Positions 1,395-62,981 of a stretch of 64,000 nt of DNA are shown here, one piece after another. Positions within the stretch are counted from its first letter, which is position 1, and every line of letters begins with the position of its first letter. Source of the DNA: Deuterostichococcus epilithicus. Taxonomy: Eukaryota; Chlorophyta; Trebouxiophyceae; Prasiolales; Stichococcaceae. The stretch spans positions 930,001 to 994,000 of the forward strand of contig JAVTLE010000023.1 in assembly GCA_033439295.1 (NCBI GenBank), in the 5' to 3' direction. The translations under genes and the position numbers were made by a program. The notes under the pieces are model-generated. The model was given only the letters and a program-made list of their open reading frames with translations. It was not told where the DNA came from and did no database searches.

Positions 1395-4300
1395 ATGACA
1401 GATGTGCCTGGCGAAACCGTGTCGGATGACAAGCTTAAGCAGCTGGTGGACGCCAGCTCCGATGCCGTACTCGGCAACATGCATGTCGAGCCGGTCGATG
1501 ACATGCGGGCAGAGCGGGAACGGGCGTCCATCGATTCTGAGGCCTTAGCAGTCTACATGAATGGGGGAGCCAAGAAACTCGAGCGCAAGTGCGTACTGGT
1601 GTTTCGTATGCGCAACTGATTGCATTCGACCACCCAAGTCATTGCGATCTGTCTGGCTCGCATCAGCAAAGCAGAGGACGTTGTCTCAGCATGCACCGAC
1701 TGCTGCGCTCAAATCGCTGCATCAGCCCGCCACAAACGTGAGTGCTCCATGACGTGCTATCGCAGGCGGGAGATGGCGGAGCTCGTGGCAACGAAGCCTT
1801 GGGGCGACAAGCGGCGGCGATACTTTTTGTCGCGGACGGAGGAGTATGTTGGGGCGCTGCGCGCGTCGCTCGGCATCTGGTAAGCGGCCGGCGCTGTGTA
1901 GAGGCATAGTCAAAACACATACACTCTTTTTTAAACTATGAAGCCCCACCGCATCATGCTCAGGAAGCGCATCGACTTCCTTTCCAGCTCGCTCGACCTC
2001 GACACCGCGTCTCTAACCTGTCTCTAATCCAGCCACGTTGCTGTGCCCCAGCAGGCGATGCTCAAATCTCGCATGCAAGTGTCGTGTCTACATTTGCAGG
2101 GACCTGATGCAGGAGCAGAACCTGAGCGTGCAGGACGGCATGATGATGCGGTCGCTGCTTAACTTCCCCGGCGGCCTGGAGCTGCACATCGGGGTGTGCA
2201 CGAGCTGCTGTGGCACCCTGCCCGTCATCTGCTTTATGTAGCCCAGTGACCGCATGCAGCGTATGGTTACAGCCGACTACCAGTGCATGGCCAGGCCGCC
2301 GGAGGGCGCTCCTGTATTCGCGCCTTCACCGCTGGCTGCGAGCCATGGGCACCCATGCCGCCTGCCGACCGCCATCCGTCTCCCGCATGTGCGACGCCTG
2401 TTGCACTGGATGACGAACTGCCAAGTCCTGGTCGCTACAGATGTGGATCCCGACGCTGATGGGGCAGGCGACCGAGGAGCAGCAGCAGCGCTGGCTGCCA
2501 CCCTCCCAGAGCCTGGAGGTGTGTGCCACAGCTGTTAGCAACCAATGGAATCACCAGTTTTTCCAACTTTCCCCTGGACTGTAATGGCCCACGAACCCAA
2601 CAAGCCGCCATCCGTACGCTCCTCCGCCTCCCTCCACCGCTCCGCCGCACGTCAGCGCTCGTATCGTGCTCTGCCAGTCTCCTGACCAATGACGTCCTGT
2701 CTGTAATTCTGCCTGCTAGCCCTCCCTGATGCATTCTGACATGTCGCCCCGCAGATCATAGGGACGTACGCACAGACGGAGCTGGGGCATGGCACATTTG
2801 TGCGGGGCCTGGAAACCACGGCGACGTATGACCCGGACAGCCAGCAGTTTGTGATCCACTCGCCAACGCTGTCCAGCACCAAATGGTGGCCAGGCGGTGC
2901 GTGTTCTTCCGCCACGGATGTGTGTTTCCTGCCAGTGTCACTCGACAGCAGCATATGGACCACTCTCTCACGCTGTCCAGTACCAAGTGGTCACTCGGCG
3001 GTGCATTTCTGAATGTCACAGAAGTACTTTCCGGATGGTCACACGCCTGTAGACACGGCTGCATTCCGTGCCTGCACTGTATGGCACCAGTGGGCCCAGC
3101 GGTGGGTCTTGCTCCGCATTCTCATTTGCGAAAAGAGTCCTCGGGGTACTGTTCGTTGGCCTGGTCCAATGGCAGGCTCCTCTGGTTACAGACCTCGGCA
3201 CAGTTTGGTGGACGAAGTGAGGCTGCGCCAGCGGGGCCAAGATAGACCCTGCAGACGATGCAGCGGCCAATTGCAACAGAAGTCAACCTGCTGCAAGCTG
3301 GCAGGAGGGTTGCGAGGATGACTGCGGTCCGATCGAAAGGCAGGAACCGTTCACTCATCTTTCCCGACCCGACGCTGCAGGCCTGGGCAAGACGGCGACG
3401 CACGTGGTCGCCATGGCGCGCCTGTTCGTCAAGGGCAAGGTGATGTTTGCCTGTGATCAAGGACTCTTCGTCACCCTTGCTCATCTTGGCGTTGTCACGA
3501 GAGGCACACTGTGCGTGACTCCTTCATGTTCGTCTTGTTTTTCATCTACATTCCGTACACCGATGCATCAGTCACCGCATCAACACCTCCGGGCTCGTGA
3601 CTGCTGCGTGGCTGGACTCGTGGATTGAGTGCTCTGACCAGAACCACTGATGCACTGTGTGTGCTCGCGGCAGGACTATGGGCCGCACGCGTTCATCGTG
3701 CAGATCCGGTCGCTGGCGGCGCACCGGCCGCTGCCGGGAATCACCGTTGGCGACATCGGCCCCAAGTTCGGTGAGAGTTACTCCCAGAAAGTGACGCCAC
3801 AACAGCAGGCCGAAGTCTCACGACCACCTCGAAGGCCACTGATAACATCGCCAGATGTGTCCCTTCGCTTTGCACGGCATCACATCCTTGGCTCAGCAAA
3901 TATGTCCAACCTCTTGCCGGGTAATGATTGGGTCGCCAAAACCCTGACTGCAGGCTACAATGGCGTCGACAATGGCTTCCTGCGCTTCGACTACGTCTGC
4001 ATACGTGCGCCTTTTGCAGCACCATTCCTCGTGCAACCCCTACCTGCCTTTCGCATTTCTGATTGCCTGGCTGCCGTGTCCCCCTCCGCAGAGCTATGTG
4101 TTGCTCGGTGGGATACCCACTGAGTCGCCCCAAATTTCAGTTGTTGAGGGTTTTGGAAACATTGGCAGCTCGTGGCCACCTGTAAGCATCCCTACTCTGC
4201 TGCTTTCCCTGAAATCCTCAACCCTGCTGCAGCGCGGGACAACATGCTGATGCGCTTCGCCAAGGTTACGCCGGAGGGGCGCTACATTCCGCCGCCACCC

Positions 4301-7300
4301 GCAAACTCCAAGGCCTCCTTTTCCACCATGATCTACGTGCGCGCAACCATCGTGGAGGAGGCCGGCGAGTACCTCGCTCGGGCCGTCACCATTGCGGTGC
4401 GGTCGGCGCCTGTTTGATAGTATTGAGTCTTTAATCTGATGTAATTTGATTTGGATCATGATCATATATAGGCCACAGGGGCTGCTGCGGCGGGGGTTCC
4501 GAGAGCAACATCATGCGCAGTATCGGTCGGAGGCACAGCGATCTGTCTTGGCCGCACTGCCTGAAGCCATCTGCTCTGCAGGCGCATTGCTTGCTCATTA
4601 CACGTCATGTGCGATCGCACATCTGGCAGGATGCAGGCTGGGCGTCGCTCCGGCACACACAGCGGCTCTGAGTCGCCACTGCTTTTCTCTCTACCGCTGT
4701 ATGCTAAAGGTGTCTTAACCCTGAAGAAGCCCTGGCCTATGCAGACAAGGTACGCGGCGGCGGCAATTGGCGCCGTGGTCTGGCGTGCATGGGACGCAGG
4801 TGCTGGACTACCAAACCAAAAACAGATTCTGGATTCCTTCAAACTAGCACCAAGCTTTTTCTCCATGTAGCCATCAAACTTATATTGTATTGCCCGCGCA
4901 GACCAGGTGCACGGCGGCAGTGCTCCCCCGGGCGGGCGTGCGCAAGACATAGGTGCCAAACTACCAGGTCACTATTTTCTGTATCATTTCTCTTCACAAT
5001 TTCATAAACCCTGCCCTGCAGACGCGGTACACGGCGGTACGGCGGCAAACGGCGCCGCGCGCGGGCGTGCGCGAGACGCAGGTGCTAGATTACCAGAATG
5101 TGTCCGCTGAGCTGCTGCCGCTTGTCGCGGCCGCATACGCCCTCAAGTTCATGGGCCAGGCGCGTTTAGGGTGTAGGGTTTTCCCCTTCTGCCTGTGGAA
5201 ATGGCCCTGAAATGCGACACCAAGCGGCTGCGCAAACCCATCGCTTTTTCGGACTGCTGCTGTTATTTTTCCCTGCACCAATGCGCTGCTGCCGCCGCCA
5301 CTTCTGCTGATGCTGCTGCTGCTGCTGCTGCCGCCGCTGCAATTGCCGCCAAGATGCTGGGTGCCAATTGCACAGAGTGCTGCGGAAAGAAGCGGCGGCT
5401 AACATTCGTGTTCCTGTATGCTGGGCCAGGCGGGCATGGCTGACTACCGGCGCTTTGAGGAGGGCCGTGACGCCGGGGACTTCTCCATGCTCCCGGAGCT
5501 GCACGCTTCGCTGTCCGCTTTGAAGGTGCAACAAAATCGTATATTTTATTTATATATATGTTTTTCGACATAAATTTCGTCTGTATATGTTCTTTGCGCC
5601 CAGCAACTGACTGGGCGCAGATTCACAGACAGGCTGCTGCTGCAGCTTCCGTCCATGTGCTGCGTGCCTCCCCGTCTCGGCGTTGTGCGTGCGGGCGCTG
5701 CGGCATGCCTTGGCCACGTGTACTGGCAGTCCCTTAGCCACCAGCTGGTTGCTCTAGTCCAGGGCTGCTGTGAGCGACATGCGTCCAGAGTGTGATTTCG
5801 CACATGACCTTGCCCGGTTGTCGGTGAGACGCTGCACGTCTGCCCTCAGGCGCTGTGCACCTGGATCACGTGCGAGGGCATCGAAAAGTGCCGCTTGGCG
5901 TGCGGCGGCCATGGCTACAGCCTGCTGTCGGGGTTGCCAAGCATCTACGCCAGCTATGTGCAGGTATGGCAGACCCTGGAGGTGCTCTGACCAGCCAGCA
6001 GAAGGCACCACTGAACCGATGTGCTGCATCAGCGGTTGACGCGACGCGCGGCAGTGCCGTCTGACAGGCGAGCAGGGACCCGGCATATGGCCACCCTGCA
6101 GTTGATTGCAATGGCTGGATCACCTTCCGGCAACCTGGGCTTCTTCCGAATGCCTGCAGAACGCAACCTGGGAAGGGGACAACAATGTACTGTGCCTGCA
6201 GGTACAGTCACGTCTTGCTGCTGCATCCCTGCCCATCTCCACCCCTGATCGCAGCTGCACGCTTGCCCATTGTTCCGCTGAAGCGCACCGGCAGGCGTGC
6301 TGCAGGTCTGGTTGTGGCTGTCGGCTGCATGCCTCATCTCCTCCATTCTCGGGTGCCCACTGTCACGAAAAACACTCCGTCAAACGACCTGCGCTGAACA
6401 TCCGGCTCACATGGTGCGTGAAATCACACGGTGCTTGAAAACACATGGTTCTCAGAACCCACAAACCTGTGAAACCCCGCAGACAGCGCGGTACCTCGTC
6501 AAGACGCTGCTGTCGGCGTCAAAGGGGGCGGCGCCAGCCGGCGGCGCGGCCTACCTGGGCGACGCGGCCGCCGAGGCGAAGCGCCGCAGCGGCGTCGCCT
6601 CGCCGGCCGACTGGCTGCAGCCGGAGGCCCAGCTGGCAGCGCTCAGGTGACCAGCCTCCGACATGCACCATGCCTTCGATGCGCTGGGCGCATGAGGCTT
6701 CGTGCTCCACGGTCGGCGTGGGCGCCTCTGCCACGGTCGTGAGACGGTTGCGGCGTTCGTAGCACTTGACGAGGCAGTGGGTACATCTGGAGCTGCAAGG
6801 CCACGGTTCTGACACTTATGAGGACCAGGCTCAATGCCGCAACCGCAGGGTCGGGGTATCTGGTTGGCGCGGGAGGTGGCGCATACATGAGTCGACACGG
6901 GCAGATGCAGTTGCAGAGACTGGTGCAGCTGCGGAGACTGATGCAGCTGCGTTGGGGTGAGCACAAGCATTGCAAACTGCAGGCACCGGGCGTCGCGCCT
7001 GGCACGCGAAGCGGCGCAGACTCTGATTGAGGCCGGCGGCGGCAAACCCGCCTTCGAGGGCGCTGCCTGGAACGGCTGCACCGCCGACCTCATCCGCACC
7101 GCCAAGGCGCACGCGTACCTGGTGCTGCACGACACCTTTTACGCCCACGTGCGGGGCCTGCAGCAGAAGGTGCGGAGCGAGATGCAGCTAGGTCTACCCT
7201 GAAACACAGCGCAACACAGCAGGCGTTCAGCGAAGTTTCCCCGCTCCCAGCTGGTGATGCGTGTTGACAGATGCATCTGCTTGTCGGGGCTCCCTGCCGC

Positions 7301-8317
7301 AGTGCGCAAGTGCAATGTGTCCCACTGCATCTGGGGTATTTGTAGCCGCTCGTGTCAGACCTGTCCCTGCCGCACACTTTGGTCTTCGCACACTACAGGG
7401 CGACCTGCCGGGCGGCACGGCGGCGACGCTGCTGCAGCTGGCGCAGCTGTACGGCCTGACAACCATCGAGCGCCAGCTCGGCGACTTTCTGGAGGATGGC
7501 TACTTGTCTGGTGAGGAAAAAAGGAAGAATTCATCCCAGATTCAAAAATGCATGCACACACGACCCAACTCCCCGCAGTTGATGTCCAGCGGAGGCACTT
7601 TGGGGTTGCGGGGCATTTCAGGGACGGCGGCAGCCTTTCAGAATGGCACCAGATGTCCGGCTAACCATCAGGGGTTCGCGACCAATTTACTCTGTTATCG
7701 AGTGCCCCACCTGTCTGCCCGCTCCTGACTGCACAGAGGGCAGGCCAAGGCGGCGTGGGTGGCGCAAGCTAGCGCCGCGCGACAGTCTGGCCAACCATGT
7801 TCAACATCAGGGCGGCCCCCATCTGGTTGCCAAGATGCCTTTTCAACGAACAGACATCATGCCTGCATGCAGAGGTCCAGGCCAAGGCGGCGCGGGCGGC
7901 ACAGTACCAGCTGCTGCGGGACATCCGGCCCAACGCCGTGGCGCTGGTTGATGGCTTCGGGTTCCAGGACTACGTCCTGAACAGCGCGCTGGGCCGTAAG
8001 GATGGTGACGTCTACAGGTGCCCTGAAGACCGTTCTGCCCTCGCCCATGCCCGGTCAGCTTGTCTCCAGGGAGTGTGACATGCCTTCCCAACTCGCAAAA
8101 TGGGTCCCGCGCTCCCGTGCGGGCAGCTGCGGCTAGGGTTGTCATTTGCCCCTGCAGCACGTTTCACAGACACATGGACGCGTCACCCAACCCAATTCCG
8201 TTGCACTGCAGGGCGCTGCTGGAGATGGCACAGGACTCACCGCTCAATGACACGCAGGAAGGTCCCGCGTGGGCCGAGGTGCTGCAGCCGCAGCTCACTG
8301 CGCGCGCCAAGATGTAA
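1395..8317 (+). CDS. peroxisomal acyl-CoA oxidase (ACX), 19 exons, 713 aa
   Basis: Oxidises acyl-CoA to trans-2-enoyl-CoA with FAD, passing electrons to O2 to give H2O2: the first step of peroxisomal beta-oxidation. Exons: 1395-1588, 1766-1879, 1964-2008, 2100-2193, 2441-2518, 2755-2896, 3381-3439, 3674-3770, 3954-4004, 4233-4396, 5022-5159, 5430-5525, 5850-5963, 6160-6201, 6483-6646, 6983-7169, 7399-7510, 7873-8017, 8212-8317; every phase closes. Family landmarks in order: [20 protein letters not shown] (substrate/FAD region), [32 protein letters not shown], and TWEGDN with the probable catalytic Glu near residue 467. The C-terminal region carries [11 protein letters not shown]. The protein ends ARAKM; AKM fits a plant-type PTS1 peroxisomal signal. 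Length matches plant ACX1-type enzymes (about 665-690 aa). The exon 3 donor (GTCTCT) and the GC donor of exon 11 are unusual. Confidence 0.95.
2952..3010 (+). repeat. decayed copy of the ACX exon 6 / donor boundary
   Basis: About 104 bp downstream of the end of exon 6 (2850-2908), the intron repeats the exon end plus donor. ACGCTGTCCAGYACCAARTG is shared, as is GGCGGTGC around the donor. The real boundary is the upstream copy, because it keeps WWPGG in frame with the next exon. Confidence 0.75.
4742..4975 (+). repeat. two decayed tandem copies of ACX exon 11
   Basis: Intron 10 holds two copies of the start of exon 11, at about 4742-4812 and 4901-4975, each preceded by a CAG acceptor. The functional exon starts at 5022. 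The copies recall TRYTAVRRQ and the later ETQVLDYQ coding stretch. The first has lost the reading frame, while the second reads TRCTAAVLP and reaches a TAG. They are therefore pseudo-exons and not mutually exclusive alternatives. Spacing between units is about 120-160 bp. Confidence 0.8.
7731..7775 (+). repeat. decayed copy of the ACX exon 18 start
   Basis: The block CAGGCCAAGGCGGCGTGGGT in intron 17 mirrors CAGGCCAAGGCGGCGCGGGC at the start of exon 18 (7873 on), about 140 bp upstream of it. It is preceded by an acceptor-like CACAG. Confidence 0.65.
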
Positions 8318-15205: not shown

Positions 15206-18200
15206 TCAGTAGGCGCGAGAGTGGCTGCCGGCAGGCCCGCGCAGCGGTTGCGGTTCGCCCGGCGGCCCAGAGTTCTGCGTCCAGGCCATCATGAACACCC
15301 AGAACATGAACACGCCGCCAAACACCACGACGAGAAGGCGCGCGTTGGCGTTCCACTGCCGCCGCAGCCACTTGCCCCACGGCATCGAGGCGACCACCGG
15401 CGGCGGCGCTTTTGTCAGCCGGGGCACCTCGAGGCCTGCGGCGCAGCCTTCAGGGTTTAGGGCTTCGGCCATCACAGTGTTGCCGGGGCATCGGCCTGCG
15501 ATCCATCAGCACGGAAATGCAGACGCGGAATCCCCCTTGCATTCTTGCCCCAGCTGCAAAAGTAGTCTTGATCGCGACCTTGTCCGGCCAGGACGCGACG
15601 CAGACAGCCGGATGCATTTGCAGACCCCTGAGCCCAGCTCACCCTTGGCGCCGCGCTTGCGGATGCGCGTCTCGCCGCTGGTGATGCCGGCTGTCCTGCT
15701 ATCGCCGCCGCCGCTGCTGGCGGCGGCGGCAGGCAGCTGCTGTGGGGCTGTGGCCAGCGCACGGCCGACGGTCGCCGGCGGCGGTGCCGGCAGCTGCACG
15801 GACGCCGCATCGCTCCAGGTGCCGTGGCCTGCGCCGCCGGCGCCGACGCTCCGCACCCGCACCTGCGGCGGTTTGAGGACGAAATGCGTGACAGAATTCA
15901 ATGCTGCAACAAGCCATGCTGCTTGAAAAGACGGCCGCAGGCCTGACCCGCATGCCCCGCGCAGCGCAAGCTTCGAGCAACGGGTGCCCAACGTCGCTGC
16001 CGCCGCACACAGATCCCCCCGCCCAGGGTTGTGGCTTGCGATGCGGCAGCTGTGGCGGGGCAATTCATCCTCTCCTCACCTGGTAGGCCCAGCCGGGCTC
16101 CGCGCCGTGCAGGATGCACTCGTGCACCCGCCCGGCGCACGTCTGCTTCAGCAGCGCGCCGCCGGTCATTGGCGCAGCTTCCACCTCGTAGGAAGCGCAC
16201 GCGGCGGTCGCCTCTGAGGCCGCCGCCGGGCGCCAGGCTGCCGCGATGGCGGCGCTGCCGCTGTGGTGCCTGGGTGAAGGACGGGGAGCAGCCCCGATGT
16301 GAGTGGAGGCTTGCGGAACCACAAGGTGCGACTCCCGAGTGCACCGCTGCCATCGATCATGAGCGCACTGCGCCTGCTGGCGCACGAAAGCAGGCACGCA
16401 CAATTGTGCAGTCCACACCAGCGCCTGACTTTGCAGGCCGTGCTTCCATCGGCAGGGTCCCGAACTGCAGGGTGTGCGGGATATTTCGGATCTGCAAGTG
16501 TGTCCACACACACACACATGCGCGAAGATGCATGCCTGGCAGAGGCGGCGGCGCAATCTGCTGCTGCTGGCCTCGCTGAGACGCCCGTCGGCGGCGGCGG
16601 CGGCGGCTTGGCGGTGGTCACCGCCACGGCCGCCGTGTGGGCGCTGCTGCCAACGGCGTTGCGGGCGCACAGCCTGCGGTGCAGCGCAATGCGGGGCTGA
16701 TGAGATGCGCGCCACGGGGCTGGATGATATTGAGACGCCTGCCCACCACCCGAGAACCCTCACGCGCATGCATCTAGTCGACCCCTGGGATGCTGCAGCC
16801 CAGACCGGAGCACCCCTTCCAACCTCTGCTTCTGCCCACACACCCGTGTACCTGGTCCCAGGGAGCGTGCAGCACCGGCTGGCCGGGCGGTCAAGGGGGT
16901 TCAGGGTGTGGCAGAGCCCTGGAGTGGCGGCGCACCTGAACAGGTAGCGGCTGCCGGCGTCGAGGCCGCCTACGCGGCACTGCGTCGCTGCGCCGCTGTA
17001 CACCTCGGCCCATGCGCCGCCGAGCCCGTCCGCGGGAATGGCCTCGAGGCTGCAGCAGCTATGAACATGTGAGGGGCAATTTTAAGACAGGCAATAGACC
17101 AATCGCCGCTGTGCCTGTCGTGGAAACCGCCTCCAGGCTGCGGCAGTTGATCATGCGACACCAAATGCAGGATGAGAGCCGGCCGCCGGCGCTGGGATTG
17201 GTGGCAAGCCAGCAACCCAGCCGCCGCGCAGCCGCCGCAACTGCCCACTCCATTTTGCGCCCATGTCACCTTGGGCACGATGCCAGCGATAGCCTTGCCA
17301 CGCTGACAGGTGCTTGACAGCAGATCGTATGAAACAGGTTGCGTTCCGGAAACGTGATGGGAGATGGTACATGGAATATAAAGTTGATTGGTGGGCATCG
17401 CACCTGTACATGAGGATTGCCGCGCCATTCTCCTCTGTGGGTGCCTCCCACTTGGCACGCGCCGATGTGGCTGTCACCTGCGAGCCGCCGGTTACGCTTC
17501 ACCGCCACCGGTCCTTGGTGGCGGAGCAGTAGTGGCAGAGCTCGCAAAGTGTGGCGAGTGGAACAGGTCCTTGGTGGCGGATCATTGGTGGCAGAGCTCG
17601 CAAAGTGTGGCGAGGGAAACAGTCTGCATCGTGCTAGCGGTGCGTCACAGACATTGGGGCTGAGCGTGGGGGCAATTGGTAAAGATCCTGCCATCACAGG
17701 GTCGAATACCATCAGAGTGCGCCCGCTGACGACGCGAGCACTGAATGGTCGCGCCAGCAACTGCACCCGAATGCGTGTACGTCTTCGTGTGTCGCTCGCT
17801 TTAAGCCAGAGAATCTAGAAACAATCATGATGAAGTAACGTGTCATCTCTTGTAGAAGCTCGCTCGCCTGGCTGAAGGACGGGGCTGGAGGCGGCTCGGG
17901 CGCCGCCGGGGCAGTCTGCGCTGCCACTGTGTCGCAGAAGGGGCCCATGCCGCGGGCGTTGGCGGCACGGGCACGCAGCAGGTACACGCGGCCGTGGCGG
18001 AGGCCGGACACCTGCTTTCGCGGGCCACACTCAGCTCTGTGGGATCAGCGCACGTTGCAAATGCAATCTCACACCGCATGTCGGGTTGGCGCCCTCAGCT
18101 ACGCCCCCCGNGGGGGGCGAGGGGCAGTGCATCGAAGGCACCGCAACGGCATGGGCTTCAGGGTGGCCGTCTGCAAGCGTGGCACCTTGTTCCCTTCAAC

Positions 18201-21200
18201 CCTGGAACCCTTTCTTCCCCCTGCCACACATTTGCTCTTGGGCGGCCGTCCGGACCCTGGCCCAATGCTCGTGCGCACCCGGCAGGACGCCTGCGGGCCG
18301 CTGTGCGTCAGCTGCCAGGCCGCCTCGTGGTGCCGCCCGCGCGGCGGCTGTAGCGCATACTCCAGCTGGTACCCTGACACCGCCGCTCCTGCATGTCGAG
18401 GGCGTCAATTCGAGACGGGATGTTCTCGCTCGCGGAGCCACAAGCCAGGCCGGGCAGGACGGCAGGAGAACGGAGCCAGCCCTGTAGTCGGGCAGCGTGG
18501 CGTCACCACGATGCCCCGTGGAAGATTGGGGAACCCACAGGTCACAGGCGCGAAATGGCAAAGGCTCAGCGTGCATGGCGACATGCACATGCCGGCCAGC
18601 CAGTCGCCACCCTGACTCATGCACATACGGCGAGCGCACGGCATTGGTGGCGGGTGGGGTGTGCAGGCTGCTGCACTGGCAGGCTATTCGCGAGCTGCAG
18701 AGTGGCCTGCCGACAGTGAGCAACTGCACGGTCCACACCATCCCCACAGTCTCAAGAGCACTCATCGTGCTCTTGCCTGAAACCGCCGGTGTGATGCATG
18801 CACATTGAGGAGCACTGCTTCTAGGCCAGGTTCTCATGCCGCTGAAGTGACCGCCTGTCAGAGCAGGTACATCAATTCGCCGGCATTGACTCTCTGACCT
18901 CCGTCTGTGTATAGTCGGGGTCCAGATGAGTGCCCCCACCTGGCGAAGCAACCAGTCGGCTGTGCAGCGGACTCGCGAGCGCTTCATCAATCGCATCTGA
19001 CATGTCAGGCATAGTGACGACCCACCGTTGTCGGCCGCGGGCGGCTGCCAGGCCACGTCCAGGCAGCCTGCTGCAGGCGCGACGGCAGCCAGCCCCCGCG
19101 GGGGCGAAGGCGCCACGGCGGCGGTGGCGAGCACTGCAGCGCCACTCCACTCACCGCCGCCGGCGTCCGAAGAGGCGCGCACTCGGAAGGCGTACTGCGT
19201 GTGCGGCTGCAGGCCCCGCACCTGGGGGAAAGAGAATTGACAGGACATCAAGCGGCAGGTTGGTTGCAGGTCGCGCAACTGGGTATAGAGGAACCGGGTT
19301 GCGGGACAGGCTTTGTGTCAGGCGGCGCAGCGTCACACTCCGCTGCTGGCGGCTGAGGCAGTAGTCGGACCGCGGAGCGATGGCATGGCAGCAGACATTG
19401 GGGCAGGCACGTCTGCTGCCGTCTCAGCACGAGGCCTCACTAGGAGGGAAGGGTCGACGGATCACGGGCAGACGATTGTGGCTGCCTGCCTTTGGCTTCC
19501 TGCCGTGAAACACAAGCATTGAGATGGGTCTTCAGGGGGCTGCACCTTTGCGCAGGAATTCTTCCCCTCGTACACAGTGTCCCAGCACATGGCTTTCGAC
19601 ATGTGCGGCGGCGGCGACGACAGCAGTGGCGGCGTCGGCGCCGCGCTGCTGCCGGGGAGCTGCGCTGCGGTACTGACCTCGTGACCGTAGCCGTTCTGGC
19701 CCCTCCCGTTCTGCTGCAATCCGGTCGAATCTCAGCCGATGCACCTTTGTGGAGGCTCATATGGGGCATTGAACACGCTCGAAACGGCAGTACAGACAGC
19801 AGACATTTCTTCAGCCTGCTTGTGCAACTCCAATCATACTGGCTGGCAAACATGCCCAAATCTAGGTCCATGCACCTACAAGGCGCAGTGCTTGCCTTGG
19901 AGGTGAACACAGCTCCAGGCACTACCATCCAGGGCCTCACCTCTGTGCGCTCGTGCTTTGCCGCCGCAAGAAAGGCCGCCGCGAGGCAGGCCTGCAGCGA
20001 AAAACCAGTGACGGGGCAGCCGCGTGCAGGCGGGGGGTGCCATCGCAGCTTTAAAGCGTCGCCGGAGGATTTGCCGTCCAAATGTGGCGGCGGCGGCGCC
20101 AGCGGTGGCGCCGCCTCGGTGGCTGCGACCACTGCAGCACAGCAGCCATGTTGTCACGAGACACAATGAATCGATCACACGATTCGACCACTCGGCTCGA
20201 GGGCAGCTCTCGAGACGCGGCCGTCGCCGCGAGCACTGCAGCAGCGCAAAGGCGCGATTTGTGAAAATTCGATATACCACAGGAACCGAACAGGCAACTT
20301 GAGCCACCAGCGGGGGTGCCGCCTCCATCACAACAGCCACTACAGCAGAGCAGTGGTTGCCTGTTTAGCCCTTTCAAAACCATATGTATGCATCATTAAC
20401 ACTCGATCACTGCGGTGCAAGGGCTGCTTCCCAGACGCTTTGGGGGTTTCTATCCCATGAACCTCTGACAAGCCATGCACGGGACTGTTGGCCCAGTAGC
20501 GTCTGGAGAGTCTCACATGACTGAGTAGGGGACTCTGGAATAGCAGCGCTGCCATTCCCAACCCGGGTGCATCATTCGTAGGCCCCACGAGTTGCTGGGC
20601 CGCGAGGCGTTGAGGGAGTTGATCGCACAATTGCTGGCTGCGGGTGCCATGGCAGAAACTTTCAAAATCTCAGAAGGTCTCGAGACACTCAAGAAATTCC
20701 TCACATGACTGGCTGGGCGGCGATGAGCCGAAGGAGTTGATTGCGTAGGCGCGGATTTCATATTCGGTGCCGGGTGACAGACCCTCCAGTGCAGCAGACG
20801 CCTCCTCGCCGGCAGCGGCCGTGGCAAAGCCCTGCGGGGGCGGCGGCGGCAGAGTGCTCGACGATGTCGCGAACAGGGAATAGTATGCATGCCAGCAATG
20901 GGACAGCCATTGTCACAGAAGTCGCTTTGTTTGTTCGACAGGCCAGGGCTGGGGGGAATGCAGCGCTTGTACGGTGCAGCTGGTACATCGTGTTGCGTCG
21001 AGCCAGCTGCTGCAGTGCCGGCCTGGCAGTGTGCAGGCAAGGCTCACGTCTGCACTCGAATGAAGGGTAGGTCAATCCAACAGGCTGCCATGCAATCAAG
21101 ACCCTAAGTACACCTACCAGACCGGGCGGCTGCAGTGGGCGTATCTCCAGTCGGTAGCTGATGACCATCGCGCCGCCGTCAAAGCCCGGCGGCTGCCACC

Positions 21201-27498: not shown

Positions 27499-28741
27499 AT
27501 GCCATGCCGCCAGAGGAGGCTGCATCTGCTAGCGCCTGTGGCGGCGATAGGGGCAGCGGAGGAGTCAGAACGACCCGTCAAGCCGGCGTACAACAAGTAC
27601 AGGTGTGAAAAAGATTCGGGACAGATGATCTGGCAGCAGCTCTGTTGCCTTTGGTGACGCTGCCGTGCTGCAGTGGCGGCTTTCGCACGAACACAGCATT
27701 GCATGCGCTCCGCTGCAGCTGCACCGGCTTGCCCCTGTCTCGGGCACAGGCCTTGCGCACTTGCAAGGCCGCAAGGAATATGCTAGTGGGTGCGAGCAAG
27801 CCGCAGTCAATGCACCATGCAGGAGCCGTGCTGACATCGAAAAGAGCTACCTGCGGCAGTGGCAAGCGGTCACAGCGCGGGGCAACGAGGGCCAGGTGTG
27901 ACCTTCCATGCGCAAGCATCGTGTGCTCTGCCGAGCAGACACCATGTTCACAGTGCATCGTCCCCACAATCGCCTTCCCAGTGTCCTGCCTGAGACCTCT
28001 AAGCCTCCTCAGCAAGCCTTCGAATCGATGGCGACTGGTTGATGGCGCGTCTCAATGCCCTGCAGGAGCGCATGACGGTCTTCTCGGCGATCGCCTACCT
28101 GCCGCTGTGGGCCAAGTACACGCTTCTGCCCGACTTTGTGCGCTTCCTGTGGTGGCTGGTCTGGGTGCGGATCTGTGCGGTCGCGCACCTCTTCCATCGG
28201 GGCGCCGTCAAGCAGGGTGCGTCACGACTGCGAACATCTAAACCACCCAAACGCCGCTCAGCTTTGGCAGCAGAGCAGCAGCACACTGCTCCCAGGTTGC
28301 ACTGCTGCCATCGCTGCGCGATCAAGCAGGGTGTGTTGCAGCTCCTTGCTGACATGTTGGTGAGAGCCAGTTGAATTGGTTGAACATCGCTGTGCTGCCC
28401 AGATCCCATTTTGCATTGCTTGCTTGACGGCGCAGCTGTTGCCAGAGACAACTGCGCTACCGGCATGTTGGGCCCGTCTCCCCGCTGCCACATCATGCCC
28501 CGACGTCATGCAGCCGTCAAGCCACTGCACAGTGGGGCCATGCATCCTCTGGTTCCCCCATGATTGTGTGAAAATCTTTGTGTACTGTCTTGGGCATGCA
28601 TTTGCAGGCGCCAAGCTGGATGCGTGGCTGGCGGGCCGTGGCGGCCTGCGCCACGCCTTCTCGCGGGCTGTCGTTCTGCGCCGGTACCACCATAAAATGG
28701 GCGCCTGGGAAAACCTGCGATATCGGTGGCACCTGGCGCGG
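27499..28741 (+). CDS. unrecognised protein, N-terminal block (4 exons) of a large helical protein
   Basis: Exons 27499-27602, 27674-27789, 28013-28216, 28608-28741 join in phase. They read from an ATG through ERPVKPAYNKY, then NMLVASLRIDGDWLMARLN, and a strongly hydrophobic stretch around FVRFLWWLVWVRICAVAHLF, ending LRYRWHLAR. The hydrophobic part could be one or two membrane or buried helices. I do not recognise the family. The last exon can end at CGG|GTGTGC (28741, phase 0) or run to 28762 (phase 2); only the second fits the next well-supported exon at 30399. So either this is the start of the gene that continues to 41671 with a long or unresolved intron, or it is a separate small gene. 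Confidence 0.45.
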
Positions 28742-41671: not shown

Positions 41672-42555
41672 GCGAAGGACTCCGAATCGTGTTGCCGCTG
41701 AACGGAGCTGTGCTGATGAACGGCTCTTGTTGAGTTGTAGTCACAAATAGGTTACGAACGTTGAAAGTGCATACGGCATTGTTTGTCTACCATCACTGAC
41801 TAGGCACATCATGGCGTGCACAATAAAGCACGGCAGGGATCTTATTCAGCTATACCTATGATCTGAAAGCAAATGAATCTCAACACAAAATGACGGCATT
41901 GGAGCAAGAGACACTCCGAGACACCCGTTAGCCCGTGATCGCCCCCGATCATAGCGCGTATACAGACCTTTGCGCTCACTCACTCCACCCCTGGCTCAGG
42001 CACGAACGCCCCAGCCCTCGGACCCAAACCAAACATGAACAATCCACAGCGGCGGCAAACTTTCACTTTGGATCTCGGCAGTCGGCCTGCCCATCGCTGC
42101 TCAGAAACAGCGCGTGATGTAATCAGTCAGCGGGTTGCGCCAAGAACGTTCGAATATCCACACTAGCAGCCGTCTGCCCCTCTGTGCACAAGTGTGTGCA
42201 GTCTGCCGCCACAGCCCGCATTGCCCGCTGATGGCAGAATGAGGCCTCCACCCATCCGCCTTGCTGTCCGTAGCGCCATCCTTGTTGCACGAACAGCCTG
42301 TTTGTGCAGCAACAATCTGTGCCGGACAAGCGGCCTCAGTGGCCGCTTGTCAATCTGTTCAACATGCTTGCGGCACCCGCCTCTGAAGTTGTTGACGGGC
42401 GGCTGATTGTTGGGCGGCCCGCATCTCGGAGAAGTTTGTTGCATCTCGAATTTGGTGGCGGGCGGCTGAAGCAGGTGACCGTGCAGGTACCACGGACCAG
42501 ATGTGTTGGTGGCCTCCTCTTCAGAAACATGTCGCCTCGGGCCCTGCTGCCGGCC
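41672..42555. other. convergent 3' region, large unknown gene and BAR gene
   Basis: Tail-to-tail region holding both 3'UTRs. AATAAA occurs near 41821 and a plus-strand TGTAA at 42118-42122. The right part holds decayed copies of the BAR gene 3' end. No other coding sequence seen. Confidence 0.5.
42370..42490 (-). repeat. decayed copies of the terminal BAR-gene exon
   Basis: On the minus strand the last coding stretch of the BAR gene (42604-42556, YLPGYLRQPSGNKF then TGA) is followed by two degraded copies at about 42490-42440 (GGTACCTGCACGGTCACCTG, AGCCGCCCGCCACCAAATTC) and 42420-42370 (CAGCCGCCCGTCAACAACTT). These copies lie beyond the stop codon, so the process is not restricted to introns. 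Confidence 0.65.
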
Positions 42556-45500
42556 TCAGAACTTGTTGCCAGACGGCTGGCGCAGGTAGCCGGGCAGATA
42601 CCGCCGTGGGGGCTGCTGCTGCGCGTACTCGCGTGAGCTATCGGTGTCGGCGCTCGACGCCTGCGGGCGTCGAAGATAAAAACGTGGCAAGGAGTAGGTT
42701 TCGCAAGAAAGACGTCTCGCATAAACAAAAAGGAATCGGGTGCCGGGCCGGCAGATGGTTCACACCCAAAAGCCGGCAGGCACCGCATGAGGTAGGGTGT
42801 CCATAATGACACTGGAGATCAGTGCACCCTTAACGGTGCTCCGACATGATCTACCCGCACCGCATCACAGCATGGCATACCCGCACTGGCTAAATCTTGA
42901 ACTCTAAACCCTAAACCCTGGAGTCCGCACCGGGGAGCCCGGGGATCCTGGCACCTCGATGACAGATGCCTCGCTCGGCGACCGGTTGTGGCCACCTGCG
43001 CAAGCAGACGGCACTTTGAGGTCGTGCGGCCCGACGCTTCTCAGTCGGTTCTCACGCTTGGATAGTCGATCAGCATTCGCACGGACGCTCGCACGGCACA
43101 GGCGAGCTGGTTGCTGCTGCAGGCAGACTTGGAACTCTGCATGCCCATCTGATAGCACAGTCTACCATAAAAGTACAGCTTTAGAAGAAGCACGAGGGAG
43201 GCAGCCTGCCGTGGCTCTCCGTCAAACTCGGCTTGAGACGATGCGGCGCAGGTCGCCCTCACAACACCAAACTGCTGCAACAGCAACTGGCGTCTTGCTC
43301 TGCCAGCCACTGGCGGCCTGGCACGCGACTAGCTCTGCTGCGAGCGGCCAGAGCGAAGGCGCAGGTGCGGAGGCCATGCACACCACGAAAGTGACGGCGA
43401 CAGCGATGTCTCACCTGGCGCCGACGCCGGGCTGAGGCCGCCGCCATTCTGGTCGCCGCGCGGTGCCGCCAGGTACCCGTCACTGGGGTTGCGCGTGTAG
43501 CCCTGCGATGGTTCACCACCGCCGCCGCGCGCGGGCAGCCTTGCCGGCAGCTGCGACGGCGAGCAGAAGCAGGCGCGTCAGCGCCGCAGCGACTGCATCC
43601 TCGACAGCCAGCCTCGCTGCCGGAGGCGTCCCTCGCCGTGCAGCAGCAGTGCTGGGAGCTACATGTGACGCAAGCGCCCGCAGAAGGATATGACTGGGCA
43701 GAGTGCTCCGGCCTCGGGATCCAGCAGCAAAACACACACAGAAGTCTGCCGACGTGCACAGCCGCTGCGGTGCCCAGGCGGGCGCGGCGGTGCAGGGTCC
43801 CGACCTTTGCAGGGCGCATGTATCCTCCCGCATAGGCGCCGTAGGCGCTGTCGCCGTCGCTTCCGCCGCCGCTCGGCACGCCGGGCGGGGGCGCCGAGTC
43901 CGCCCACACCATCCCGGCGCCGGCTGGCAGGTCGCCCTGCAGCAGGGTTTGCAACAGCACTGTCGCGGGGGACGCGCCAGGGCGGCACGCTTGCAAGGCG
44001 GACGCTCGCGGAACCCTGAGCAAGCATCTCGGCGCAGGTGTGCAAGCACTGTCCACACACCCGCCTCAGCAGCAATCCGGCTGTGCAGCACCAACCTTTG
44101 CTTTTCTATGGAGCAGCTGTTTGAAGTTTTGAGCACGAGGTGCATGCCACAAACGACTTGCTGCTTCTTCAGCCACAAGAGACGCCGTAAGGTGCCTCGC
44201 GGCCGCGTCCCAGTGGCTCGGCCGGGCTCACCTGCGGCTCCGCGACGGCGCCGCCCGCCGACCGCGAGTGCCCATGGCTGGGCGTCAGGGGCGCCTGCGA
44301 AACCTGCTGCTGCGGGTACTTCTGCTGCTGCGGCGCCGCGCCGGGCGGCGAGTACTGCGACGAGTACGCCGCCGCTGCCGACCTCACCGCCTGCTGCTGC
44401 AGTGGCAGGTCCGCCGCGGTGGCCGCCGCTGGGGGGAAGCTCGGCGGAGGCGCCGACGCCGCGCCCCCGCCGATGGGGCTGCCCGCGGCGCCCCTGCCGC
44501 CGTTGAACGAGCCGCCGAGGCTGGACGAAAAGGAGCTGTCAGCGCTGCCGCCGGCGGCGGCGAGGGGCGGGCCCCCAGCCCAGGACGGCTTGGCCGCCCC
44601 GGGCGCCAGGCGCGGCAGCGGCGAGGGGCGCGCCTGCGGCGGCGGCCGCGGCGCCGGCTGCGCCGGCCGCGGCTGCGGCGGCGTCGCTATGCCCGGCTGC
44701 AGTTGGCATATGGCAATGCGCGCTCGGTCAGCAATGAGGAGGAACACGGAGAGGTTCAGGAAGCTCAGCATCCGGCCCATCGACACGAGATCATTCAGAC
44801 AGCATGTTCACCCGCGCCAGAACCCTCGACAAGATGCTGGGGACAGCACATCAACTGTGCTGCGCCCGCAGCAACGTGTTGCAGGTGCTGCCGCAGGCAC
44901 ACACACCCTCACAAGCGAGCCTCGTCCCAGCCATGTTTATGGAAAATGCCCCACACCCCGAGGAAGTTCTCACCGGCGCCGCGCCAGGCCGGCCCGCATA
45001 CTGCAGCGACAGCGCCGCAAACGCCGCCGACAGCGCCCCGGTGGCGGCCGCCACCTGCCCCATCGCCTGGCGTGAATCCCGCGCCAGCGCCGTCGCGGTG
45101 CGGTGCGTCGACTCCTCCAGCTCCAGGTACGCGTTCCACCTCTCTGTGTGTGTTGGGATGAGGGTTCAGGGATGACTCTGGTGTTGACCATCCGAGGAGC
45201 AGGGTCTAACGTCGCGTGTGCGGTGCGTCGGCTCCCCCAGCTCGAGCCAGGCGGTGCACTGCTGTGCATGGTTGGGGCTTGCAGGTGTTGATGTTCGCCG
45301 TGCATGGGCCTAGGCCGCTGCTGACTGCTATGCGCCGGACGTTGACTCTGCAGCGCAGCGCTTGCAACCGCTCCGTGCATCAACAATGCATCGACAGCCT
45401 GAGAAGGCTCTGCTGCTGTTGCCGCCGACCGCTTGGTGTGTGCCTGCAGGACCTGCCCCACCTGCCAGCACGAGCGCCCCATTTCTCGCATTGCACATCG

Positions 45501-58841: not shown

Positions 58842-61800
58842 ATGTCGGGCTGGGACTACTGGCGCGGCACGCTGGAGGCCGCCAGCGCGCAGGCGCAGGC
58901 GGCTGCCTCGCAGGCGTCAAAGTTCGCAGAGGTCGTGTCAGCGCAGGTGCACCTGTGCGTCCAACAACCTGCTATAAACCCACCTGTGCATTCGGCCTCC
59001 CGTGACGCTGCACAGAAGCAAAACTGCGACTCAGCGACAACATCTCAACGACTGCGGTTAAATCATGTGCCTGGATGGGTGTCGCAAGCCGCGCACCGCT
59101 GCGGCAACCTGCTCTCTGCCTCGCCCTGTGACACTGCGCCACCACTCGTGCAGCATGCGCCGCAAGTCTCGGAGCAGCCTGAAGTCACCGAGAGAAGATG
59201 TGTCATGTATGTGCCATGCACGGCGCAGGTGTCGGAGCAGTCGAAGCACATCGCGGCGCAGGCGTCTACATACTCTGCCGTAGCGGCGCAACGGGCCACT
59301 GATGCCAAGGCGCAGCTGGCGGGCATGCAACTGCCCGAGGCGCTGGCAAACCTGCAATTGCCAGCGGACAGCGGCGGCGAGACGCCGGCTGCCGAGGAGC
59401 TGGCCGCATATGGTATTGATGACGACTTCTGCGGCTTCGTACGGGGCCTCACCTACTCCACGTTCAGGCGAGGGCAGGGTTAAGCAGAGCAGGGCTGAGG
59501 GTATGCCAGCGCACGTCCCATCTCGTGCATTCAACCGTCCATATTCCTGGACGGCACTGCAGGTGTGGGCGCTTGCACAAGGTGGTCATTGGGTCCTGCA
59601 GGATTGACAGGCAGGCAGACATGCAAGACTGACTTTCACTGCCCCTGCTTGTGACAGGGACTTCCTGCCCCTGCTTTTGACAGGGACTTCCCGCAAGAGG
59701 AGCTGGAGAGGCTCGTGGCGGCACAGGCGGATGCCGGCGCTGGCGCCAGCAGCCAGGCGGCTGGCGACGGTGGGGAAGGCAGCAGCAGCGCGCCGCTCAA
59801 TCCCTGGCAGGTGGTGCATCGTCTGCCCCCGCATCGTCGAATTAGACAAGTAGACAAGGCTTCATGTTTCCCGCCGAGCACCATCTGCAAGGCCTCACAT
59901 ATCTAAATGCATTCGCCTGCACCTGAAACATATTGGCCCCAGCTCCTGAGGATCATGCGAGCTCTGCAACAGGCCTTAGAGGTGGCGCCGTGACCCGTTG
60001 GACCAGCTGCTTGCACTGCTACACTTGGCCAGTTGCCGCCATGCAGGCGAAGCGTGCCGCGCTGGTGTGCCGCATGGTCAAACCTGCTGCCGGCTGCACC
60101 AAAACTCGTTTCTTCTTGCCGCGCAGGCGAAACATGCGATGCTGGTGTGCCTTGCGGTCCGGGAGATGAACGAGCTGCGCTTTGTGCTGGTGCCCAAGCG
60201 GCTGCGCGATGAGGAGTTCTGGGCAATCTACTTTGCGCTCACGCGGGGGCGGCTGCCGCCGGAGGCCTTTGACGTGTTGCTACAGACGCCGCCCGAGGGC
60301 GAGCCCTCGAGACCGGAGGTGGGGCCAAGGAGTGTTCCGTTTGCTGCAATCGGATTGCGGTGTCCAGGTCATATTCAGGAGCCGACACCGCTTGCTTGGC
60401 GCTCCAGGCCATTAAGCTGCACCCTTGTAGCCTGGCGAATGCCTATTGATGTCCGGAGAAGGCTTGGCGGGTAGCATGCTGCAGCACCACCGTGATTCCA
60501 ACAACCTGGCGGCCCTGGCACGCATGCAGCAGCCAGAGGCGTCGTTCCTCAAGTAGGGCGCGATTGAGCCGGCGACCGGAAGTGGCACTTGCGACAGCAG
60601 TGGCACTCCGGCAGGGTGAGCGGCTTTTCTTCATGCAAACACACAGGAGCCAAAGGCGCCGCTCTTCAAGGCGGACATGATCAAGCCGGCGGCGGCGCCG
60701 CCGGAAGGCGAGGACCCCGGCGGCAAGGGCCAGACGTGGCTGCGGAATCTGGTGTGCGGCTTCGACATGGAGATACCCGCGGAGCGGCTGCAGCATGAGA
60801 CCATCGGTGCGGTGTCCCTGCGGTTCTTTTCTGCACCCCTTTTCCTCAAACCTCAGAAACTCCCAAGGGCCAGACATGGAGACACCATGGAGACACCCGC
60901 GGAGCGGCTGCAGCAGAAGACGATTGGTGCGGTCGTCACTGCAGGAATTTCAGGGACCAGTGGGAGACATTACACCTACATCTTCGTGATATGAGAATCT
61001 CCATGTGAAGCGGCTGCAGCAAAGGAGACCATCGGTCGGGCTCAGATGTTTTACTTCGCATACCCTGCGGGGCCATACTGCCGGTTTGGGATGGGTCGAT
61101 GAGGCTGGGGGCTGTGCAAGACGGTGTATGACATCGCCAACTCGCGGCAGGTCGATTACGCGTAAACAGCAATCGCAACGCAGTTGTTGCCTCGGGACAC
61201 GACTATACGCAATGCCCGCCAGGTGCAAGCCTCACCAATTGCATCATGTTCCCCCTGCTGCGCCTCATGTCTCTGCTTTCTCTGTTCCGCAGTGCTGGGC
61301 GCGCTGCAGACCAAATTCGCACAGCTGTCGGAGAGCGCCAAAAGCATCCAAATCCCGGAGCAGATGCGCCAAAACATATCCGCCAACCTGGGCAATGTCC
61401 GCGAGTTCGTGGGGGACTTTGTGCCGTCGGCCCGCGGCGGCGGTGCGGCCGCCAACGGCAGCGCCTCTGCCGGCAGCAGCACGACGGCAGGCGCAGAGCC
61501 AGGTGCGGCGGCGGCGGGGCCTACAGCGGCGGCGGAGGGGCCAGCCAGCGCCTTCACGGCGCCGGCGCCGCAGGCGGTTCGTGGCAATGGCGGCGGCAAC
61601 GGCGCGCATGTGGCGTCGGTGGCGGGCGCGGCTGGCGACACCATCAGTACGACGCAGCATGGGTGGGTGTGTGACTGTGTTCAAATCGGCATCCCTAAGT
61701 TTTCACTGCAGCCCTCGACCGCCGCAGCTTGCACAGGCAGGAGGCAGGAGCTTGTGCACGAGTAATCATGCAGGGAGTCTCTCACACATACGAGAGCGTA

Positions 61801-62981
61801 TTTCAACGATTGTGTGCTGCCTGCAGGCGCGAGGGCGGCGCTGATGCCTTGCAAGCGGCCTCGCCACGGGCGAGCGCTGACGGCAGCGCGGGGTCCGCGC
61901 AGCTGGACGCAGACCCGGACCTCGAAGCCTACCTCAAGGTTTGAACGCTTCAGAAGCCCCGCAGAGCAGCCTGCGCATCCGCACCTGGCTCGTCTGTACA
62001 TGGGTGCAGTGTCCGGCGGCGCTTGGCTGAAACAACTCGTCCCCCTGCGCTTGCCTTGTTCCTTACAGGACCGAGTGGCCCTTGCGGGGAAACAGCACGA
62101 TAACACGACAGAAGCTTGCTGAGCGACAGAAGCTCGGCAGGGGTGGCGCAGTGGTCCGGCTGTCGTGTTGCCACTCACGATTGCAGGAGATGGGGGGCAG
62201 CTGCGGGGGCGATGACGAGATGCTGCCTCCTCGACAGCGGGCCGGCCCAGCAGCGAGCCCTGACAGAGATGGCATCGAATGCTCGTCACCGCAATGCAGG
62301 AGATGGGGGCCAGCGACGGGGGCGGCGATGGCGGTGCCGCCTCGGAGGCAGGCCCTGCGGCGAGTCTGACAGAGATGGTATCGAATGCTCGTCACCGCAA
62401 TGCAGGAGATGGGGGCCAGCGACGGGGGCGGCGATGGCGGTGCCGCCTCGGAGGCGGGCTCCGCGGCGAGCCTCGACGACGGCGAGTTCGACAAGTACCT
62501 GGCAGAGCTCAGCCAGAGCGGCGGTGGCGGGGACGGCGACGGCGGGAGCGAAGCAGGTGAGCAACTGATCGAGAACAGCCAAAGTCCGCTGTGTGCAAGG
62601 CACTGTGGCCGCTCTGGACGCTTAGGCGGGCGGTCGCCCCAATGGCCGCGGTGCAGTTGCCGAGGTGCTGGACTGGTGCTTGAGCTTCCCCGCTGGCTTT
62701 GCAGAGACAGGGTTTCACAGGGTTTGCATGTGACGCAGGCAGTTGGCTTCATCACCTGCTTCCGTCGCTTGCGGTGGTTGTGGACAGTGATCGGTTCCCA
62801 GCCATGTCGATTCCCGGTCCACGGTGACTCTGCGCACCTGGTTGTATGTGTCACAGGTAGCGGAGAGGAGGTGGAACTGGACCTCGAGGAATACATGAAC
62901 GCCATTGCCTCGGGAGACGATGCGGCATCGGACGGCGGCGGCGATGACGTTGTAGCAGAGGAGCACACGCCAGCATCGTAG
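58842..62981 (+). CDS. BSD-domain protein, 9 exons, 526 aa
   Basis: Exons: 58842-58946, 59229-59467, 59684-59810, 60127-60318, 60647-60806, 61293-61662, 61827-61938, 62406-62556, 62857-62981 (TAG); phases close. An amphipathic Ala/Gln-rich N-terminus (MSGWDYWRGTLEAASAQAQA) precedes DDDFCGFVRGLTYSTFRDFP and the BSD core, MNELRFVLVPKRLRDEEFWA followed by IYFALT, with the paired aromatic residues (FW, YF) typical of the domain. This layout is that of the plant BSD-domain proteins rather than TFIIH p62. The C-terminal half is acidic and Gly/Ala-rich with short helices such as LEAYLK, DDGEFDKYLAELS and ELDLEEYMN. The function of this subfamily is not established. Intron 2 has a GC donor, and four exon edges have decayed tandem copies next to them. 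Confidence 0.85.
59641..59691 (+). repeat. 26-bp tandem duplication of a BSD-gene acceptor and exon start
   Basis: GCCCCTGCTTKTGACAGGGA plus CTTCC occurs twice in a row (59641-59665 and 59667-59691). Both contain GACAG|GGACTTCC. The second is in phase with STFRDFPQEE. Using the first would insert 26 nt and shift the frame. Confidence 0.85.
60042..60100 (+). repeat. decayed copy of the BSD-domain exon start
   Basis: GCAGGCGAAGCGTGCCGCGC followed by TGGTGTGCCGCATGGTC mirrors GCAGGCGAAACATGCGATGC and TGGTGTGCCTTGCGGTC of the functional exon about 80 bp downstream. Confidence 0.7.
60528..60585 (+). repeat. decayed copy of the exon at 60647
   Basis: AGCCAGAGGCGTCGTTCCTC then AAGTAGGGCG and GAGCCGGCGACC repeats AGCCAAAGGCGCCGCTCTTC, AAGGCGGACA and AAGCCGGCGGCG of the functional exon, about 117 bp upstream. 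It contains a TAG in the exon frame. Confidence 0.75.
60876..61050 (+). repeat. two decayed copies of a BSD-gene exon end and donor
   Basis: The exon end CCCGCGGAGCGGCTGCAGCA plus ATCGGTGCGGT (up to donor 60807) recurs at about 60895-60935 (ACCCGCGGAGCGGCTGCAGC, ATTGGTGCGGT) and again, more degraded, at about 61000-61045 (GAAGCGGCTGCAGCA, ACCATCGGTCGGG). Spacing is about 105-110 bp. Confidence 0.8.
62187..62405 (+). repeat. two tandem copies of the BSD-gene exon 8 start (recent)
   Basis: The exon 8 start (62406, GAGATGGGGGCCAGCGACGG) is preceded by an almost identical copy at 62300-62405 (106-bp unit) and a more divergent one at 62187-62299. Each unit carries the acceptor, about 70 bp of exon and the linker ending CGTCACCGCAATGCAG. 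The copies diverge in the exon after GCGGCGAG: only the last continues to LDDGEFDKYL. Confidence 0.9.

What the first reader, a model, noticed from the sequence alone, without database searches (positions are those of the whole stretch)
2850..62470. Window-wide habit: exon edges duplicated in tandem, with decayed copies next to functional splice sites
In at least six genes (acyl-CoA oxidase, FNDC3-like, large unknown gene, BAR, BSD, probably FN3K) the stretch beside a functional exon edge repeats that edge with its splice site one to four times, at about 26-160 bp spacing and in all stages of decay. The copies are specific to the adjacent exon, so they are not a dispersed transposon. This looks like a continuing local duplication process that generates pseudo-exons, candidate alternative splice sites and new introns. 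I know of no standard feature name for it.
Basis: partly seen in the sequence, partly recalled or inferred. Interest (0 to 1): 0.85.

Follow-up and report, generated by a model that had tools for sequence, protein, structure and literature searches.

The report
Tandem duplications straddling exon edges
In this stretch of what looks like a green-alga genome, pieces of about 110 bases that straddle exon-intron boundaries were repeatedly duplicated side by side, leaving decayed extra splice sites inside introns; the process looks like ordinary small tandem duplication, but it is frequent and unusually uniform in size here.

Summary
Same-strand repeats at 10-330 bp spacing number 28 where about 0.3 are expected; inverted ones show no excess. 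Exon ends match their own adjacent intron at 10 of 251 edges (score 18 or more), against 0 of 2510 comparisons with distant introns and 0 of 1255 with shuffles. I place 26 decayed copies at 20 splice edges (15 acceptors, 5 donors) in five genes: acyl-CoA oxidase, FN3-repeat, large unknown, BAR-like, BSD. Fructosamine kinase is not supported; six other gene models have none at that score.

Best explanation: small genomic tandem duplication, tolerated because splicing removes the extra copy. The copies look dead: differences fall 19/21/27% on codon positions 1/2/3, against 21/16/40% between coding paralogues. One array crosses a stop codon and four pairs lie outside modelled exons, so splice sites are not required. 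Whether edges are favoured beyond survivorship is unresolved (16:4; p 0.002-0.19).

Unexplained: 19 of 20 first-order spacings are 80-137 bp. Most copies keep a splice dinucleotide (19 of 22, not significantly more than control), so alternative use is possible but untested. No RNA, relative or whole genome was available.

The parts
2842..2900 (+). ACOX exon 2755-2896, functional donor edge
   Evidence: protein aligned to solved ACOX1 7q84 through TKWWPGG
2946..3010 (+). Decayed copy of the 2896 donor edge, GT kept, spacing 104
4745..4813 (+). Decayed copy of ACOX acceptor edge 5022, AG kept (gene finder called it an exon)
   Evidence: without it the protein aligns to ACOX1 without interruption through TRYTAVRRQ
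4902..4967 (+). Second decayed copy of ACOX acceptor edge 5022, AG kept, spacing 120
7723..7795 (+). Decayed copy of ACOX acceptor edge 7873, junction about 7737, AG kept, spacing 136
17099..17158 (-). Decayed copy of FN3-gene acceptor edge 17049, spacing 89
20204..20248 (-). Decayed copy 1 of FN3-gene acceptor edge 20131, spacing 104
   Evidence: the edge at 20131 is my correction of the gene model
20307..20353 (-). Decayed copy 2 of FN3-gene acceptor edge 20131, spacing 208
20586..20626 (-). Decayed copy of FN3-gene donor edge 20705, GT lost, spacing 118
23413..23469 (-). Decayed copy of FN3-gene donor edge 23499, GT kept, spacing 83
23688..23762 (-). Decayed copy of FN3-gene acceptor edge 23621, AG kept, spacing 137; both edges of this exon have a copy
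24105..24162 (-). Decayed copy of FN3-gene donor edge 24221, GT kept, spacing 114 (weak, score 18)
24397..24437 (-). Decayed copy of FN3-gene acceptor edge 24352, AG lost, spacing 80 (score 19.7)
33684..33747 (+). Decayed copy 2 of large-gene acceptor edge 33929, AG kept, spacing 239
33800..33861 (+). Decayed copy 1 of large-gene acceptor edge 33929, AG kept, spacing 120
35953..36014 (+). Decayed copy of the start region of large-gene exon 36056-36181, spacing 122; the alignment does not reach the acceptor itself
36545..36593 (+). Decayed copy of large-gene acceptor edge 36673, AG kept, spacing 123 (weak, score 19)
37382..37547 (+). Two decayed copies (about 37382-37442 and 37474-37547) of large-gene acceptor edge 37611; the gene finder called parts of them mini-exons
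42376..42491 (-). Two decayed copies of the stop-codon end of the BAR-like gene (42559-42602) in its 3' flank, spacings 174 and 111: not a splice edge
45210..45277 (-). Decayed copy of BAR-like gene acceptor edge 45143, spacing 120
59639..59668 (+). 26-bp tandem copy of BSD-gene acceptor edge 59684, AG kept
60002..60071 (+). Decayed copy of BSD-gene acceptor edge 60127, junction 60047, AG kept, spacing 80
60518..60574 (+). Decayed copy of BSD-gene acceptor edge 60647, AG kept, spacing 117
60886..60942 (+). Copy 1 of BSD-gene donor edge 60806, GT kept, spacing 120
60990..61039 (+). Copy 2 of BSD-gene donor edge 60806, GT kept, junction about 61034; ends approximate
   Evidence: sequence
62182..62257 (+). 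Older copy of BSD-gene acceptor edge 62406, AG kept
62260..62365 (+). Youngest unit: 106-bp duplication covering intron end, acceptor and exon start
   Evidence: 67/71 exon side, 29/30 intron side

Best explanation
Small genomic tandem duplications, most with a unit of 80-137 bp, arise in this gene-rich DNA. When a unit straddles an exon edge, one edge stays in use and splicing discards the other with the intron, so the mutation does little harm. The discarded copy then mutates freely while the used copy is held by selection, which keeps the pair recognisable for longer than an intron-only pair. Shown: local direct geometry, mostly non-coding evolution of the copies, homology through the splice junction in the youngest unit and on average in others, and the same process at a stop codon and outside modelled exons. 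Inferred: origin by fill-in repair of staggered breaks or by slippage, and harmlessness through splicing. The first two rivals could hold in addition.
For: Direct repeats only, with a tight distance limit. The youngest unit, 62260-62367 vs 62366-62473, is one block through intron, AG and exon. Intron-side remainders of 19 pairs score above shuffles on average (mean z 1.2; 6 of 19 at p below 0.03), though in a few pairs (7873, 5022, 36056) that remainder includes the splice site and exon bases. Codon-position differences 71/371, 77/365, 99/365 against 20/97, 16/97, 39/97 for three GT8 paralogue exons. Duplication across the BAR stop codon; pairs outside modelled exons at 17507, 21815, 28185, 30018. 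Two-copy arrays step 104/104, 120/119, 106/113, 120/108 and 120/157, as repeated tandem growth would. Which ACOX copy is in use follows from alignment to ACOX1. Small tandem duplications by repair of staggered breaks are documented (PMC5730883, PMC8355091; passages seen).
Against: With the splice site skipped, intron-side homology is weaker than a simple simulation of the same ages predicts: mean z 1.8 in 16 pairs (about 1.0 without the 62406 pair, by hand) against 2.6-4.7 expected; hidden indels that move the assumed unit limits explain part, as at 60806. A uniform process with slow intron decay predicts about one edge locus per non-exon locus; 16:4 was counted. The same simulations predict about a quarter as many whole-exon duplications as edge ones, about four here, and I identified none clearly. 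Unit length is much narrower than two assumed size models give.
Confidence: 0.8

Rival explanations
1. Duplication is targeted to exon edges, for example by nicks or RNA-DNA hybrids linked to transcription or splicing at the junction.
For: 16 exon-edge loci (15 splice, 1 stop) against 4 non-exon loci at scan score 20 or more (my hand count, arrays counted once); p 0.0018-0.028 under the three slower-decay settings.
Against: p is 0.06 and 0.19 under the two fastest-decay settings, and one search is consistent with fast intron decay. The four non-exon pairs are 79-90% identical over their trimmed matches (by hand), that is about 0.05-0.12 substitutions per site per copy; only 2 of 22 edge copies are that young, so among young events edges are not in excess. 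The stop-codon case has no splice site.
Confidence: 0.12
2. The copies are retained because they serve as alternative splice sites or alternative exon starts.
For: Splice dinucleotide kept in 19 of 22 copies; 14 of 16 acceptor copies score above the 5th percentile of modelled acceptors, and in 8 of 22 pairs (two of them ties at one decimal) the copy scores as well as or better than the used site.
Against: Retention does not differ significantly from AG/GT inside the same alignments (70 of 100; Fisher p 0.18), and local alignment favours kept ends. Only 6 of 16 acceptor and 2 of 6 donor copies exceed the 95th percentile of random intronic AG or GT sites. The two copies of 37611 and the copies of 17049 and 36056 were not in these counts; in the 37611 alignments the used AG is not kept. 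No coding constraint; 5 of 22 copies hold an in-frame stop and 15 of 22 an indel that is not a multiple of three in the aligned part, intron side included.
Confidence: 0.08
3. Chance similarity, splice-site consensus or low-complexity sequence.
For: At scan score 18 or more, 4.4 of 91 windows are expected by chance, so single weak pairs may be false.
Against: Exon-only queries with distant-intron and shuffle controls; masking.
Confidence: 0.01
4. Assembly error or collapsed haplotypes.
For: The 62260 unit (95% identical) and the 26-bp unit at 59639 (93%) are young enough for this to matter.
Against: Graded divergence of the other copies.
Confidence: 0.02

Closest known systems
Small tandem duplications from repair of staggered breaks (PMC5730883, PMC8355091, which cite earlier rice and Arabidopsis work)
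   Same: Same-strand, head-to-tail, tens to about a hundred bases, no dispersed element
   Different: Here they are fossils seen through their decay, and the unit length is tightly grouped at 80-137 bp; no repair factor can be tested from sequence
Internal gene duplication and intron gain by tandem duplication (Rogers model; Gao and Lynch 2009, seen here only as cited; potato RdRp case, PMC4974935)
   Same: Tandem duplication inside genes that interacts with splice sites
   Different: Those cases duplicate exon sequence and make a new intron, or multiply whole introns; here an existing edge is copied, the copy lies in the existing intron and no new intron is shown
Introners (PMC9860276; search listing and start of abstract only)
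   Same: Repeated sequence associated with introns
   Different: As described there, an element that inserts copies of itself into many genes; these copies match the neighbouring exon

Membership tests
Small tandem duplication | Direct, same-strand copies close together | tested here: met
   direct excess only; 28 of the 29 masked repeats found at offsets 10-970 at score 18 or more lie within 330 bp
Small tandem duplication | Copies contiguous over the full unit | tested here: inconclusive
   Met for the 62260 and 17507 units; older units keep only partial intron-side homology
Small tandem duplication | Origin by break repair or slippage | not testable with these tools
   Needs mutation-accumulation lines or repair mutants
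Intron gain by tandem duplication (AGGT model) | New intron bounded by the duplicated AGGT | not tested
   No orthologue was available; the curated copies lie inside introns of my corrected gene models
Introner or other dispersed transposon | Same sequence present at many unrelated loci | tested here: not met
   Tested in this window only; distant matches are the GT8 gene pair, GC-rich or simple tracts, and a few weak matches (E 0.006 to 7e-5) elsewhere, some on opposite strands; none is a family; 0 of 2510 distant-intron comparisons at score 18
Tandem (mutually exclusive) exon duplication | Copies under coding constraint | tested here: not met
   codon-position pattern of the 22 copies pooled is unlike that of three paralogous exons; single copies were not tested apart

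The most novel reading that the evidence does not exclude
This lineage has a duplication process with a preferred unit of about 110 bp that falls preferentially on exon-intron junctions, so that introns grow by accumulating spare, largely intact splice sites of their own exon, some of which are used.
Probability: 0.12. Interest if true: 0.8.

Novelty: new variant of a known kind. Interest (0 to 1): 0.45.

Why it matters
If it holds genome-wide, such a genome is a natural fossil series of one mutation type: each copy dates itself against a conserved exon, so rate, unit size and splice-site fate can be measured. It would also give a direct test of where spare splice sites and intron length come from, and it is a trap for gene finders: mine called at least four copies exons (4745, 37398, 37478, 62300).

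Tried and rejected
Spacing in multiples of three (7 of 20): no signal. Selection for kept splice dinucleotides: not significant. Acceptor bias (15 of 20, two-sided p 0.04): suggestive only, after hand curation. Transposon origin: no dispersed family in the window. RNA families at gathering score and tRNAs: none. Literature: in the listings (20 of 482 papers shown, 10 of 13, 10 of 11, 12 of 27, all hits in the rest) no title or abstract start describes repeated exon-edge duplication in a green alga; only open-licence papers are held. Passages of PMC3446292 (Coccomyxa) and PMC12636532 (Auxenochlorella) shown do not mention it; I had half-recalled such a remark for Coccomyxa and did not find it. 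FN3K claim rejected.
Full report
Setting. The window is about 61% GC, with about a quarter of its bases coding in my splice-aware self-trained models (152 introns in models of 60 aa or more, median 228 bp, donors like AG|GTGCG, acceptors like TGCAG|G). That it is a green alga is my inference from these traits and was not tested. No tRNA or Rfam match at gathering score was found.

Is it there? Yes. At offsets 10-330 there are 28 masked repeats of score 18 or more, where far offsets predict about 0.26. Inverted repeats show no excess. At score 18 or more the counts are 10 of 251, 0 of 2510 and 0 of 1255. Introns outside 80-1200 bp (12 of 152) and edges with under 25 exon bases (29 of 280) were left out of that test. 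A gapped scan found 35 clusters at score 18 or more, built from 91 windows of which 4.4 are expected by chance.

What is duplicated. I aligned 22 copies at 17 hand-chosen splice edges and four more at three edges: 15 acceptors and 5 donors in all. On the exon side 854 of 1101 aligned bases agree. Five edges and one have two copies. In ACOX the copies at 4745 and 4902 were called exons by my gene finder; with them left out the protein aligns without interruption to solved ACOX1 through TRYTAVRRQ, so 5022 is the edge in use. The same alignment covers TKWWPGG at the 2896 donor. Elsewhere the 'used' copy is inferred from reading frame and gene model only.

Dead or alive? Differences between copy and exon fall on codon positions as 71 of 371, 77 of 365 and 99 of 365. 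Three GT8 paralogue exons, a coding control, give 20, 16 and 39 of 97 each. Pooled, the copies therefore evolve mostly as non-coding DNA; the mild third-position excess (p 0.011) is what silent change in the exon would add. Splice dinucleotides are kept in 19 of 22 copies, not significantly more than AG/GT inside the aligned exons (70 of 100, p 0.18), and local alignment favours kept ends. Copies average 5.3 bits of splice score against 7.9 for the used sites; 14 of 16 acceptor copies lie above the 5th percentile of modelled acceptors, but only 6 of 16 acceptor and 2 of 6 donor copies exceed the 95th percentile of random intronic sites. Some decoys are thus still plausible splice sites, and only RNA can say whether they are used.

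Is it tandem duplication of DNA? The 62260 unit is continuous through intron, acceptor and exon for 106 bp. In 19 pairs the remainder on the intron side is on average more alike than shuffles (mean z 1.2; 6 of 19 at p below 0.03); in a few of these the remainder contains the splice site and exon bases. A stricter version that skips the splice site gave mean z 1.8 in 16 pairs, or about 1.0 without the 62406 pair (by hand), where simulation predicts 2.6-4.7. Part of this shortfall is mis-set unit limits: at 60806 a further matching stretch upstream suggests a deletion in the copy, so the unit is longer than its 120-bp offset (my reading). I read this as tandem duplication followed by fast intron decay, but the shortfall is a result against the simplest version.

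Are edges targeted? Uniformly placed duplications with these unit lengths and ages should give about as many detectable non-exon loci as edge loci. At scan score 20 or more I count 15 splice-edge loci plus one stop-codon locus against four non-exon loci (hand count, arrays counted once; two intron-only pairs at 19.3 and 19.8 and five edge loci of the 20 fall below that score). The probability of 16 or more of 20 is 0.0018, 0.0070, 0.028, 0.061 and 0.19 as assumed intron decay gets faster. The same runs predict about a quarter as many whole-exon duplications as edge ones, and I identified none clearly; selection could remove these. By trimmed identity the four non-exon pairs are young (79-90%, by hand), and only 2 of 22 edge copies are as young, so young events show no edge excess. 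This is not decisive either way. The stop-codon array and the four non-exon pairs show that a splice site is not required; 28185 lies between gene models and could be an unrecognised exon.

Unit length. Of the 20 first-order spacings (assembled by hand), 19 lie between 80 and 137 bp (mean 111, SD 17 without the 26-bp case). Flat or 1/U size distributions over 20-330 bp put 19.5% or 26% of detected edge events in the 80-139 range. The histogram of all masked repeats shows the same peak: 10 of 28 at 110-129 bp. The non-exon pair at 28185 (114) and the stop-codon copy at 42445 (110) share the size, while the other three non-exon pairs are 48-65 bp. I have no explanation; paired nicks at a fixed reach would fit but is speculation.

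Known or new? Tandem duplication is reviewed as a genuine intron-gain route (PMC3443670, passages) with a plant case (PMC4974935, passages), and small duplications arise by fill-in repair of staggered breaks (PMC5730883, PMC8355091, passages). I recall Gao and Lynch 2009 and Hellsten 2011 as the closest sources; neither is held. The listings of my searches (some capped) showed no description of this pattern in a green alga. I therefore rate it a new variant of a known kind: ordinary mutation, with a density and unit size that look unusual, in 64 kb only and without another genome measured the same way.

Noticed in passing
47815-50304 and 51771-54319: Two tandem GT8 glycosyltransferase genes on the minus strand; their matches fall on exons, and neither has exon-edge copies.
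   Followed up: partly
17507-17622: A 56-bp duplication, 90% identical, wholly inside an intron of the FN3 gene.
   Followed up: partly
28185-28336: A 114-bp-spaced repeat between gene models, same size class as the exon-edge units.
   Followed up: no
37291-37314 and 22340-22412: A perfect 24-base palindrome and an imperfect palindrome of about 73 bases.
   Followed up: no
55997-56629: Internal repeats at offsets 69 and 180, both multiples of three, in the glutamine-rich coding part of CSTF2.
   Followed up: no
41018-41087 and 53551-53620: A 70-base match on opposite strands, 70% identical (E 7e-5), between distant places; a similar weaker one links 7398-7449 with 53549-53600.
   Followed up: no
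62452-62472: The exon just after the young 106-bp array is about three-quarters identical to the start of the unit, so the young duplication may have used an older short repeat.
   Followed up: no
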